Below are positions 10,729 to 14,985 of a DNA stretch of 64,000 nt, one piece after another (the stretch's first letter is position 1; each line of letters opens with the position of its first letter). The DNA comes from Gammaproteobacteria bacterium (GTDB lineage Bacteria; Pseudomonadota; Gammaproteobacteria; Steroidobacterales; Steroidobacteraceae). The stretch is from assembly GCA_005878835.1 (NCBI GenBank), contig VBMV01000059.1, forward strand, positions 62,001 through 126,000, read 5' to 3'. The notes beneath the pieces were generated by a model. The model made no database searches. It had not been told where the DNA came from and saw nothing but the letters and a program-made list of their open reading frames with translations. Made by a program: the position numbers and the translations under genes.

Positions 10729-11328
10729 CTAGCGAGTCTTGCGGAACTTGTAGTCGCCGATCGACAGCACGCCGGCGGCAAGCTCGGCTTGCGGCGCGGC
10801 GCCTGGAGCGTCGGGACAGACCCCGGGGTCGTGCGTGGCGATGAAGCGCTCGCCGCTCTTCTTCCACAGCAGCTGGCAGCCCTCGGCCTGCACATCCTCG
10901 GTCACGACGCTCGTGAACAGCTCGGTGTTGCGCTGCCCGTCGCGCCAGCGCAGTGGCTCGACGAACTGGTACACCGTCTCGACGATGCCGCGCTTGTCGT
11001 CGACCTGGAAGCTGTACATCTTCTGGCTCATGACGCGGCGCGGATCGTCGGCGGCCATCTCCTGCGCATAGAACAGGTGATGTCCGAGCCGCGGCGTGTA
11101 TACCTTTACGATGATGAGCGCGATGAGATCATGCGGCGGCCGCGCGCCGCGGCCGGCGTCGCTCGCGGCCTGCTCGCTGTTGTCGTAACGGCCGGGCAGC
11201 AAGGCGAGCAGCTGGATCAGCTCGCTCTCGCGCAGCTTGCTCTCATCGGCACAGGCGCCGAGCAGCCCGAAGATGGCCAGGGCGGTCGCAGCAGCCATCG
11301 CGGGCGCGGCGCGGGCGCGCTCAGCCAT
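10729..11328 (-). CDS. CpcT/CpeT-like (chromophore lyase family) lipoprotein
   Basis: A 199-residue protein with an N-terminal lipoprotein signal (LLGAC near residue 26), so it is probably anchored in the periplasm. The remainder matches the CpcT/CpeT fold: LLPGRYDNSEQA near residue 45, then HHLFYAQE, MYSFQVD and a C-terminal DGCQLLWKK-like segment (here EGCQLLWKK). In cyanobacteria such proteins attach bilins to phycobiliproteins; proteobacterial members have no known role and no phycobiliprotein is seen here. Its ATG overlaps the end of the ATP-grasp gene by 8 bp, so it is the last gene of the minus-strand run. Confidence 0.82.
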   Translation of the reverse strand: MAERARAAPAMAAATALAIFGLLGACADESKLRESELIQLLALLPGRYDNSEQAASDAGRGARPPHDLIALIIVKVYTPRLGHHLFYAQEMAADDPRRVMSQKMYSFQVDDKRGIVETVYQFVEPLRWRDGQRNTELFTSVVTEDVQAEGCQLLWKKSGERFIATHDPGVCPDAPGAAPQAELAAGVLSIGDYKFRKTR

Positions 11329-12355
11329 ACGAGGCCCGCCACTGGGCGCGATACTTCAGCCCGAGGTCCATGAGGTGCTCGAGAAGCTCGCCGTAAGGGG
11401 TGCCGGCGGCGCGCGCCGACTCGGCAAAGTCCTCGGCGGCCTCGAGATTCGGGTTGGCGTTCGCCTCGAGCACGTAAACCTGGCCTTGCGGGGTCACCCT
11501 GAAATCCATGCGAGCATAGCCGGACATGCCGAGCGCCCGGTAGATGCGGCGCGAGAGCCGGTCGAGCGCGGTGAGCACCGGCGCGGGCAGGTCGGCGGCC
11601 GCGTGGGTGGTGATGCCGTACTTCGCCTGGTAGCGCTTGTCCCATTTCACCTTGCGCGTGGCGATCGCCGCGAGCGAATCAGGCATGGAGCCGAACACCA
11701 TCTCCCACACCGGCAGGCGCGTGAGCCGCTCGTTCCCCATCATGCCGACGTACAGCTCGCGGCCCTCGATGTATTCCTCCACCAGCGCATCGGATTTCAC
11801 CTGCTCGTGAACGAACTCGATGCGCTCCTTCAGCTTCGCGGCGTCCTCCACCACCGATGCCTGGGCGATTCCGAGGGATGCGTCCTCGACCGTGGATTTC
11901 ACGAACAGCGGAAAACGCAGCTTCCTCGGCACGTGAATGTGCGCGCCGCGGCGGAACACGGCGAACTGCGGGGTGGCGATGCGGTGAAACGCCAGCAGCT
12001 GCTTGGAGAGCGACTTGTCGCGCGACAGCAGCAGCCCGCGCGGATTGCAGCCCGTGTACGGCTGGCGCAGGAGCTCCAGGAACGCCACCACGTGCTGATC
12101 GTAGGTGACGATGCCGTCGAATTCCTCCAGCAGGTTGAAGACGATGTCAGGTTGCCAGTCGGCGATCGCGCCACGCAGCTCGGTGAGGCTGTCGAGCACC
12201 CCGACACAGCGCGTGTCGTGCCCGAGCTCACGGAGCGTCGCGGTGACGTCGTACTCGGTGCGCCACTCCTCGATTTCCTTGTCGCTGTGACCTTCGAGAC
12301 TCTCCGGAGGCACCAGGCTCGCGTGCACCACGACGAGCGTGCGCAGTGGTCTCAT
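11321..12355 (-). CDS. ATP-grasp enzyme, D-alanine-D-alanine ligase-like
   Basis: A 344-residue ATP-grasp ligase, expected to join a carboxylate to an amine through an acyl-phosphate. Seen features are PDIVFNLLEEFDG near residue 70, the TGCNPRGL loop near 102, FPLFVKS lysine strand near 148, the VEEYIEGRELYV strand near 192, and the metal-binding ARMDFR followed by VLEANANPNL near 300, close to the D-Ala-D-Ala ligase pattern. It is not standard Ddl: the N-terminal Rossmann part is divergent. The start ATG at 12355 lies in the last of three 20-bp repeats and has no clear ribosome site of its own. It overlaps the CpcT-like gene and follows the metallopeptidase. Confidence 0.85.
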   Translation of the reverse strand: MRPLRTLVVVHASLVPPESLEGHSDKEIEEWRTEYDVTATLRELGHDTRCVGVLDSLTELRGAIADWQPDIVFNLLEEFDGIVTYDQHVVAFLELLRQPYTGCNPRGLLLSRDKSLSKQLLAFHRIATPQFAVFRRGAHIHVPRKLRFPLFVKSTVEDASLGIAQASVVEDAAKLKERIEFVHEQVKSDALVEEYIEGRELYVGMMGNERLTRLPVWEMVFGSMPDSLAAIATRKVKWDKRYQAKYGITTHAAADLPAPVLTALDRLSRRIYRALGMSGYARMDFRVTPQGQVYVLEANANPNLEAAEDFAESARAAGTPYGELLEHLMDLGLKYRAQWRASYG

Positions 12356-12375
12356 AGCGTGCGCAGCGGTCTCAT
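12352..12375 (-). CDS. Seven-codon minicistron 2 (MRPLRTL), directly coupled to the ATP-grasp start
   Basis: ATG at 12375 overlaps the stop of minicistron 1 and its TGA overlaps the ATP-grasp ATG at 12355, again as ATGA. Its seven residues equal the first seven of the ATP-grasp protein, as expected from duplication of that gene start. If coupling holds, ribosomes must re-initiate three times in 40 bases to reach the ligase, which could lower its yield relative to the metallopeptidase. Confidence 0.35.
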   Translation of the reverse strand: MRPLRTL

Positions 12376-12395
12376 AGCGGGCGCAGTGGTCTCAT
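12372..12395 (-). CDS. Seven-codon minicistron 1 (MRPLRPL), between metallopeptidase and ATP-grasp genes
   Basis: ATG at 12395 overlaps the metallopeptidase stop as ATGA, and its own TGA overlaps the ATG of the next minicistron. It has no separate ribosome site. It could be translated by terminating ribosomes that restart; the peptide itself probably has no function. Translation is inferred, the reading frame is seen. Confidence 0.35.
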   Translation of the reverse strand: MRPLRPL

Positions 12396-13444
12396 AGCGG
12401 CAAGTGCGGAGTTTCGCGTTCGGAGTAAAGCCCCGTGAGCCGCTCGAGCATCCAGCGCGAGTAACGCAGGGCGTCGCGGCGGTTGCCGTATACGTAGAGT
12501 TTGAGGCGCTCACTGCGCTCGATCAGCATGCGCAGCACCTGCTCGACGCTGTAGCGCTCGATGCGCAGCGCCCGCGCCACGGCCGGGACGAGCGGCCGCA
12601 GGTGCGCGCGCAGCAGGGTCGCGGCCCGCGGGGCGGCACGGCGCGAGCGCTCGGGGCTGAAGGCGCGGCGCAGCAGCTCATCGGCGAGTCCGCGCCGGAT
12701 CTGGCGGTTGCGCGCCAGCTTGCGGCGATAGTGCTGCGCCAGGGTACGGGTGTTGTGCTCGAGCGGCTCGATGCGCGTGCGGTTGCGTACCGGCGCTCGC
12801 ACCCCGCGCACGCTCGCCACCAGCTCCTCGACCGCCCGCAGCTTGTGCAGCGCCGGCCAGTCCGCGTAGCTCTTGCGCCAGCCGGATTTCGGCGTCAGCC
12901 ACACGGCGAACGTCTCGGCGAAGTCCTCGCTCGGGTGCGCCTGTGCGTACCACTCGCCCAGGTGATGCACGTAGCGGCGGCTCCCGGGGCGTGCCCGGTA
13001 GCGCGCCGGATACGGGAGCGAGGCGGGTCCGAACACGGCTCGCCAGCGCTTGCGCCGCCGCAGCCGGTAGGCATTGTCGAGCGCGTGTCCGGCCTCGTGA
13101 CGCAGGATGCGCAGCAGTAGCCGGGTGTTGCCGCCTTCCGCCTCGCGCATGATGCGCCGCTCGAGCCGCTCCAGACGCGGATGCGCGAGGTAGAAGGGCA
13201 CCGCGATGCCCGGGACGCCGTCCGGCGAGAACCACTCCTCGGACAACCACACGTGCGGGCGCAGGGCGATGCCGCGGCGCTCGAGGTCCGCATACAGGCG
13301 CCGCACGTGCGCGGCCAGCGGGGAGCGCTGGATGGAAAGCCTCAGATCACAAAAGCGCTTGGTCAGCAGCTGCTCATCGGACAGACGCACCCACGGCCGA
13401 GCCTTGGCGCGCGCCGCGATTCCGGTCCGGCGTGTCGGGGACAT
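12392..13444 (-). CDS. Putative zinc-binding metallopeptidase (HExxH)
   Basis: A 350-residue protein with no export signal, so probably cytoplasmic. The zinc motif HEAGH is at residues 116-120 followed by ALDNAY, and a second conserved acidic stretch SEDFAETFAVWL near 172-183 likely gives the third ligand; together these fit the putative zinc-binding metallopeptidase family (the Pfam Peptidase_Mx type). The C-terminal half is unusually rich in Arg. An open frame continues far upstream but overlaps the fusion gene, so ATG at 13444 (MSPTRRTG) is chosen. Its stop overlaps the first minicistron. The pairing with an ATP-grasp ligase suggests joining and cleaving of the same peptide bond, which is inference. 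Confidence 0.82.
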   Translation of the reverse strand: MSPTRRTGIAARAKARPWVRLSDEQLLTKRFCDLRLSIQRSPLAAHVRRLYADLERRGIALRPHVWLSEEWFSPDGVPGIAVPFYLAHPRLERLERRIMREAEGGNTRLLLRILRHEAGHALDNAYRLRRRKRWRAVFGPASLPYPARYRARPGSRRYVHHLGEWYAQAHPSEDFAETFAVWLTPKSGWRKSYADWPALHKLRAVEELVASVRGVRAPVRNRTRIEPLEHNTRTLAQHYRRKLARNRQIRRGLADELLRRAFSPERSRRAAPRAATLLRAHLRPLVPAVARALRIERYSVEQVLRMLIERSERLKLYVYGNRRDALRYSRWMLERLTGLYSERETPHLPL

Positions 13445-13545: not shown

Positions 13546-14985
13546 TCAGCCGCCGAACTGCAACATCGCGTGGGCCAGCAGCCGATCCGCGCAGCTCTCG
13601 ATCAATTGCTTTTTGATCAGGCTGTTGCGCCACAAAGTGGGGACTGCGCTTGCAGTGTAGTGCGCACCTGCAAGCGCCCCGCACGCCGCGGCGACCACGT
13701 CCGAGTTGCCGCCGAGGTTGGCGGCCGAGAGCACCGCATCGCGAAAATTCGCTGCGCCGGCAAAGGCCTCCAGCGCCGCGGCCAGCGCGGCGGGGGCGCC
13801 GTCGTGCAGGTGGGCGCCGGCCGCGCCCGGATGCCGCACCGCATCGAGCGCGGACTGCGCCTGCGCCAGGATCACCAAGCGGGGTTCCCCCGAGAGCGCC
13901 GCGTGCAACGCCTGCGCCAGCGCGCGACACGCCGTCAGGACGGCCGGCGCCTGGCAGGTGGTGCGGGCCGCCTCCGCGGCCCACTCGGCGGCAGCCGCGG
14001 GCTGAGCGAAGAAGTACATCGCCACCGGCGCGACGCGCGACAGGGCTTCCGGATCGAGCGCCCCGGGGTCGTGCGAGCCGGAGAACGGCTGCCGGCGCCA
14101 TTGCGCGCGTGCCAGCGCGCGGGCCGTGCCGGCGGTGATCCCGAGGCACTGCCCGGTGCAGGACAGATACCCCTCGTGCTGCCAGCGGCGATAGCGCGCG
14201 ACCTGATCGCGGCCATCGAAGCCCTCGCACCCGAGCAGGCTCTCGGCAAGACACAGCGCCATTGCGGTGTCGTCGCTCCAGCCGCCGCGGGGCAGGTCAA
14301 AGGGTCCACCGCCGAGCATGTCGCCCACGGGCGTGAATGTTCCCGGCCGGCGGTATTGGGTGGCGGCCGCGACCGCATCCCCCACCGCCAGCCCGAGGAG
14401 CGTGCCGTGAAAGCGCTCCCGCAGGCCGCGCGCCGCCGACAGGTTGGCGGGCTCGAACAGCGGATCCGCGCGCGATGCGTCCCTTCGCACCCAGCGGCGC
14501 ACGTACTCGGTCTGCTCAGGGGTCTCCGGAACCTGCGCCCACAGCTGCGCCCGCTCGCTTTGCTGCCACAGGCGGTTGAGCTCCTCCAGGGCCGCCTGCC
14601 CAGAGAGCCCGTTCTCGGCGAGCAGGCAGCCGACCACCGTGCCGGTGCGGCCGATCCCGGCGCGGCAGTGCAGGTAGACCACCCGGCCCGCGCGCAAGGC
14701 GTCGTGCAGGCGATCGAGCAGCTCCCCCATGTGCCCGTGCTGTGCAGGAATGCCATGGTCGGGGATGGGCATGCGCAAGTAGTCGATGTGCGGCGGGAGG
14801 TGTGCGTCGTAGGGTGGGAGCTCATCCGGCTGGGTGAGATCGATGAAACAGCTGACGCCCGCCTCCAGCAGGCGCCCCAGGCGCGCCCGGGTCGCCACCG
14901 CCGTGGACCCGCCCGGGTGCTCACCGGCGAGCAACTGACCGGGCAGCACCCAGTAGGAGTTAGGCAGCGGGAGCGCGGCAGGCAT
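13546..14985 (-). CDS. Fusion of dual-specificity phosphatase and ADP-ribosylglycohydrolase
   Basis: A 479-residue two-domain protein. Residues 1-165 are a cysteine phosphatase of the dual-specificity/tyrosine type, with P-loop HCRAGIGRT at 106-114 (Cys107 nucleophile, Arg113) and a candidate general acid Asp76. Residues 190-479 are an ADP-ribosylglycohydrolase (DraG/ARH) domain, with [11 protein letters not shown] near 197, the metal motif WSDDT at 236-240 and [11 protein letters not shown] at 423-433. The family usually has GGDTDT in the last motif, so Asp to Asn at 427 is odd and may alter metal binding. It overlaps ttcA by 26 bp and leads the metallopeptidase by about 100 bp. It may remove phosphate and ADP-ribose marks from one target, which is a guess. 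Confidence 0.88.

What the first reader, a model, noticed from the sequence alone, without database searches (positions are those of the whole stretch)
12341..12400. Tandem 20-bp triplication at a stop/start junction makes two coupled seven-codon minicistrons
Three 20-bp copies with two substitutions contain the metallopeptidase stop and ATP-grasp start. Each copy holds ATGAGACC, and because 20 is not a multiple of three the intervening frames are MRPLRPL and MRPLRTL, each closed by an ATGA overlap with the next. A former simple ATGA overlap appears to have been stretched into a re-initiation chain that could tune ligase level, with copy number as a mutable control.
Basis: partly seen in the sequence, partly recalled or inferred. 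Interest (0 to 1): 0.75.

Follow-up and report, generated by a model that had tools for sequence, protein, structure and literature searches.

The report
Tripled start site between coupled genes
In one draft bacterial genome, copying slippage seems to have tripled the 20 bases where one gene stops and the next starts, leaving two seven-codon mini-genes that may hand ribosomes on; the close relatives read have one copy, and any regulatory role is unproven.

Summary
On the minus strand, three head-to-tail 20-bp units (12395-12336, two substitutions) start at the ATGA where a Peptidase_Mx-like gene stops. They spell MRPLRPL* and MRPLRTL*, each closed by ATGA, before the only start of a D-Ala-D-Ala-ligase-like ATP-grasp gene. 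In the 51 other genus genomes where the junction could be read (of 57) there is one unit and a plain 4-nt overlap; across both collections 71 of 80 distinct junctions have that overlap, and only the window shows the repeated unit. The nearest relative (97% protein identity) has one unit, identical to the third copy, with CGCT recurring 20 nt apart, a natural slippage substrate.

Best reading: a lineage-specific slippage expansion where any insertion length is tolerated. It probably still passes ribosomes along, because each copy carries its own stop/start; a plain 36-nt gap should lose most coupling on most, not all, published E. coli data. The closest known thing is the mycobacterial MIRU, whose small ORF couples to genes at the same -4 spacing; this is a home-grown, non-dispersed 20-bp analogue. 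Tuning or mutable control of ligase level has no support: only one or three copies were seen, and no strains of this species were available.

The parts
12336..12399 (-). tandem array: three 20-bp units (12395-12376, 12375-12356, 12355-12336) plus the CGCT flank 12399-12396
   Evidence: TRF row; sequence; shuffles
12372..12395 (-). minicistron 1, ATG AGA CCA CTG CGC CCG CTA TGA (MRPLRPL*), starts in the ATGA that holds the metallopeptidase stop
   Evidence: sequence; reading frame only, no expression evidence
12352..12375 (-). minicistron 2, ATG AGA CCG CTG CGC ACG CTA TGA (MRPLRTL*), closes in the ATGA that holds the ligase start
   Evidence: sequence; reading frame only, no expression evidence
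12392..13444 (-). upstream gene: putative zinc metallopeptidase (Peptidase_Mx, PF15887), 350 aa from the likely ATG at 13444
   Evidence: Pfam 2.6e-9; start position, inferred
11321..12355 (-). downstream gene: ATP-grasp, D-Ala-D-Ala-ligase-like (PF07478), 344 aa, start in copy 3
   Evidence: Pfam 4.4e-27; the relatives read align from residue 1

Best explanation
The metallopeptidase and ligase genes have an old -4 (ATGA) overlap that probably couples their translation. In this lineage, strand slippage between CGCT repeats 20 nt apart duplicated the stop/start unit, then copied it again. The insertion changes neither protein: the first TGA still ends the metallopeptidase and the last ATG still starts the ligase, so a length that is not a multiple of three is tolerated. 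Because every copy brings its own ATGA, a terminating ribosome can restart, read seven codons, stop, restart again and so reach the ligase, where a featureless 36-nt gap would lose most coupling. The array is most likely a near-neutral passenger that slightly to moderately lowers ligase output. Shown: the array, that it was found in this genome only, the single -4 overlap in relatives, the CGCT flanks. Inferred: coupling itself, slippage, re-initiation along the chain, near neutrality.
For: One unit and -4 spacing at all 53 genus loci read besides the window's; 71 of 80 distinct junctions in both collections have -4 (68 ATGA, 3 GTGA). The nearest relative G006 has the exact third copy once, with CCGCT before it and ending in ACGCT. 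The only indel between window and G006 within the two genes is this 40-nt insertion. Other tandem units also differ in copy number between the two genomes, e.g. at 1925 and 17539 (units read by eye). The unit was found nowhere else in the assembly, so it was probably made in place. Published: at +38 nt, E. coli re-initiation fell 80-90% in two gene pairs and was abolished in a third, and the last 15 nt of an upstream gene suffice (PMC10666635 sections 6, 7). In the phage fr coat/lysis case the nearest start is used exclusively (PMC12548453 section 9). Two substitutions in 60 nt, against 36 of 412 four-fold sites differing between window and G006, suggest the array is not brand new.
Against: No expression or ribosome data. 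The age estimate rests on two substitutions. Spacing data conflict: in the review's account (PMC12548453 section 6) Tian and Salis saw no effect of spacing from -4 to +25 nt (yet highest coupling at -4), and Levin-Karp et al. saw coupling at +50 to +350 nt, so ribosomes may skip the minicistrons and no relay need be invoked. The second codon AGA is 1 of 95 Arg codons in the two genes, so the minicistrons could stall or drop ribosomes and not be near neutral. No Shine-Dalgarno sequence is clear at any of the three ATGs, which may make re-initiation weak.
Confidence: 0.7

Rival explanations
1. The array is a selected, mutable rheostat: each added unit lowers ligase translation by one re-initiation step, and slippage changes copy number between cells.
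For: Tandem units of this length can slip (general knowledge); bookkeeping with no skipping gives 3-copy/1-copy ratios of 0.81, 0.49 and 0.25 for per-step efficiencies 0.9, 0.7 and 0.5. Repeat length correlates with transcript level at the mycobacterial rnc-fpg1 junction (PMC2734929 passages).
Against: No other copy number seen: 1 of 58 genus genomes, the window's own, matches a pattern of tandem 20-nt-spaced ATGARR...GCG units. With skipping allowed, ratios at efficiency 0.5-0.95 are 0.53-0.96. Two substitutions would slow further slippage (inference).
Confidence: 0.1
2. The array weakens coupling: minicistrons with the rare AGA second codon trap or drop ribosomes, making the ligase a poorly expressed, decaying allele.
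For: AGA is 1 of 95 Arg codons in the pair, the ligase's own second codon, and is repeated in both minicistrons; the ligase start is now +36 from the real stop.
Against: The ligase frame is intact and 97% identical in protein to the relative, with 13 of 38 base differences at first or second codon positions. Every copy keeps ATGA, though with two substitutions that says little.
Confidence: 0.1
3. Assembly or sequencing artefact.
For: Draft of 186 contigs; no reads; found in one genome only.
Against: 64 bp fits inside one short read (inference); copies differ by substitutions; flanks match the relative on both sides in one continuous alignment.
Confidence: 0.06
4. The repeats act as DNA or RNA sites (operator or structure) and not through re-initiation.
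For: Two-turn spacing of 20 bp. Predicted mean unpaired probability around the ligase ATG is 0.51 against 0.35 in G006, one comparison without control.
Against: The unit is the ligase's own coding start and was found nowhere else in the assembly.
Confidence: 0.04

Closest known systems
Mycobacterial interspersed repetitive units (MIRUs)
   Same: Small ORF(s) at a gene start, coupled to the gene with -4 spacing, thought to let extra DNA sit at a junction with little effect on expression (PMC12548453 section 11).
   Different: MIRUs are 40-100 bp, at 41 places in one M. tuberculosis genome (PMC2734929 passages) and apparently mobile. Here the unit is 20 bp, was found at one place, and equals the downstream gene's own start in the nearest relative.
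Coupling of overlapping gene pairs by termination-reinitiation (ATGA, -4)
   Same: The junction in 71 of 80 distinct sequences, the near relatives included, has this form.
   Different: Three stop/start overlaps in series with seven-codon cistrons between.
Tandem repeats at the rnc-fpg1 junction of the M. tuberculosis complex
   Same: Repeats grew where species outside the complex have only a few bp between stop and start; transcript level varies with repeat length (PMC2734929 passages).
   Different: Intergenic region of 279-358 bp, polymorphic among isolates; no ATGA chain is described in the passages seen.
Bicistronic design leaders (synthetic)
   Same: A short translated ORF delivers ribosomes to the gene (mentioned in PMC12548453 section 11).
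   Different: Engineered single leader; here two natural short ORFs in series.

Membership tests
-4 overlap, termination-reinitiation coupled pair | stop and start share ATGA/GTGA | tested here: met
   71 of 80 distinct junctions; in the window three ATGA overlaps in series, though the two real genes themselves are +36 apart
-4 overlap, termination-reinitiation coupled pair | downstream translation depends on upstream translation | not testable with these tools
   needs reporters or profiling
MIRU | small ORF joined to neighbours by -4 overlaps | tested here: met
   two seven-codon ORFs, sequence
MIRU | dispersed at many loci | tested here: not met
   3 hits at up to 2 mismatches in the own assembly (95.26% complete), all in the array
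MIRU | unit of 40-100 bp inserted from elsewhere | tested here: not met
   20 bp, identical to the downstream gene's start in G006
Variable-number tandem repeat | copy number differs among strains | tested here: inconclusive
   3 copies against 1 between species; no strains of this species available

The most novel reading that the evidence does not exclude
A self-made, self-propagating relay: a stop/start overlap that, when it slips, copies its own coupling signal. A junction can then lengthen by any number of bases while still delivering ribosomes, with output falling stepwise per copy: a de novo route to MIRU-like minicistron arrays and a heritable dial on operon stoichiometry.
Probability: 0.15. 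Interest if true: 0.6.

Novelty: new variant of a known kind. Interest (0 to 1): 0.36.

Why it matters
It suggests one way that ribosome-relay minicistrons can be born: duplication of an ATGA junction carries the coupling signal with it, so the insertion is tolerated in any frame. It gives a natural 1-copy/3-copy pair (G006 and the window) for measuring how efficient serial re-initiation is and whether ribosomes skip starts. As it stands it is one case in one draft genome.

Tried and rejected
Second case: a scan of about 350 kb of G000 (window included), 400 kb of G007, 25 kb of G006 and 395 kb of other loci for tandem stop/start units (period 10-60, both frames open for at least 90 codons) gave two candidates, the finding and L156:7236. 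The latter lies over the stop of a gene that I read from memory as LpxH-like, and the next likely gene, judged from the ORF list only, runs the other way, so it was rejected. A crude count gave 23 coding-like -4 overlaps in the G000 sample and 30 in G007; the array was pointed out beforehand, so no rate follows.

Shine-Dalgarno relay: duplex energies with a typed anti-SD were 0.1, -2.7 and -2.7 kcal/mol for the three ATGs and -3.0 for G006; no clear SD, not pursued. Structure comparison: one pair of sequences, no control, inconclusive. Cloning-site idea: each unit holds GAGACC (BsaI site, recalled); single-copy relatives hold it (G006) or not (G057), so taken as coincidence.

Pair function: the paper search gave nothing that I followed up. 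Print searches for tandem stop/start units, with papers listed of papers found: 20 of 49; 2 of 2; 6 of 7; 0; 12 of 49; 11 of 11; 15 of 238; on bicistronic leaders (9 of 9). No 20-bp ATGA chain was seen in the titles, abstract starts and passages shown; most papers were not opened. Seen: PMC12548453 abstract, sections 6, 7, 9, 11 and passages; PMC10666635 abstract, sections 6 and 7; PMC6728339 and PMC2734929 passages. The 1997 MIRU paper itself was not seen.

Rows dropped: 6 of the 57 other genus genomes have no readable junction (G001, G005, G012, G038, G044, G052). L117 lacks the N-terminus. Identical junctions were merged before the count of 80. Seven planctomycete junctions with 117-123 nt spacing are in the 80, but their metallopeptidase ends align poorly. 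L112 has +17 by the aligned start, or -1 (TGATG) by an upstream start.

Full report
What is there. The 20-bp tandem array is real and far beyond chance (0 of 50 shuffles). On the minus strand it runs from the stop of a Peptidase_Mx-like gene to the start of a D-Ala-D-Ala-ligase-like ATP-grasp gene (families). The three ATGs lie in three frames. The first two open seven-codon frames, each closed by TGA inside the next ATGA. The third is the only start open to the ligase. The two substitutions lie in copies 1 and 2; copy 3 equals the nearest relative's single copy.

Comparison. A protein search of 58 genus genomes (own included) matched 57. The junction could be read in 51 of the 57 others, at 53 loci, and every one of these has a single unit and a -4 overlap. 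A scan of named genomes added 62 loci, many from the same genomes; 61 reach the N-terminus. After merging identical junction sequences 80 remain, the window included: 71 at -4 (68 ATGA, 3 GTGA), the window at +36, one at +17 (or -1 by an upstream start) and seven planctomycetes at 117-123. A -4 overlap is also seen in a planctomycete with 58% ligase identity and in a gammaproteobacterium with 46% (L105, L116), so the overlap is probably old, though the other seven planctomycetes lack it. A scan of the loci for tandem stop/start units found none besides the window's, and a pattern of tandem 20-nt-spaced ATGARR...GCG units matched 1 of 58 genus genomes, the own one.

Origin. The nearest relative G006 (identical at this junction to the named record VBNH01000047, isolate GP_16) is colinear with the window around the pair; the only indel within the two genes is the 40-nt insertion. 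In G006 the unit is preceded by CCGCT and ends in ACGCT, so CGCT recurs 20 nt apart, a substrate for slippage. Other tandem units also changed copy number between these two genomes: G006 has 39 and 54 more bases of repeated sequence at window positions 1925 and 17539. Short tandem changes are therefore ordinary here. What is special is the place: at a stop/start overlap the insertion alters neither protein whatever its length.

Age. Four-fold sites differ between window and G006 at 15 of 192 (ligase) and 21 of 220 (metallopeptidase). Two substitutions in 60 nt of array are compatible with an array not much younger than the split, but two events cannot fix an age.

Mechanism. In E. coli, moving the stop to 38 nt away cut re-initiation by 80-90% in two gene pairs and abolished it in a third, and the last 15 nt of the upstream gene suffice (PMC10666635 sections 6 and 7). 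The review reports 3- to 10-fold loss near +40 in older work, but also one study without loss up to +25 and one with coupling at +50 to +350 (PMC12548453 section 6). When two starts compete in the phage fr coat/lysis pair, only the nearest is used (section 9). Ribosomes leaving the metallopeptidase should therefore mostly take ATG1, and the chain should preserve coupling; this is inference. With per-step efficiency 0.9 the 3-copy/1-copy ratio is 0.81-0.92; with 0.5 it is 0.25-0.85; with 0.1 it is 0.01-1.81, depending on skipping. The parameters are chosen, not measured, and the model says only that a wide range is possible. The rare AGA second codon (1 of 95 Arg codons) could lower output further.

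Known or new. The review of coupling describes MIRUs as apparently mobile units that insert at start codons so that their ORF is coupled at -4, probably with little effect on the gene (PMC12548453 section 11). The present array works like that on paper, but it is not a MIRU: 20 bp, one locus, the same letters as the downstream gene's own start. A tandem region that grew at a formerly tight junction, with transcript level correlated to length, is described for rnc-fpg1 (PMC2734929 passages). I therefore call this a new variant of a known kind, of modest interest.

Noticed in passing
window 1925 and 17539 (against G006, L118/L119): G006 carries 39 and 54 extra bases of what looks by eye like 18-bp tandem repeats that the window lacks; short tandem units change copy number between these two genomes.
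   Followed up: partly
L156:7236-7286: Another 20-bp tandem (2.6 copies) in the same genome, over the stop codon of a likely LpxH-like gene (name recalled), with the next gene probably convergent.
   Followed up: partly
L105, L116, L112: The Peptidase_Mx/ATP-grasp pair has a -4 overlap in one planctomycete and in a 46%-identical gammaproteobacterium; L112 seems to use TGATG instead.
   Followed up: partly
window 13549-14985 (-): Dual-specificity-type phosphatase domain fused to an ADP-ribosylglycohydrolase domain, just upstream of the metallopeptidase.
   Followed up: no
window 10729-11328 (-): CpeT/CpcT-family protein whose reading frame overlaps the ligase end by 8 bases, in a genome whose relatives are labelled Gammaproteobacteria.
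   Followed up: no
window 12336-12399: Each unit holds GAGACC, the BsaI recognition site (recalled); taken as coincidence.
   Followed up: no
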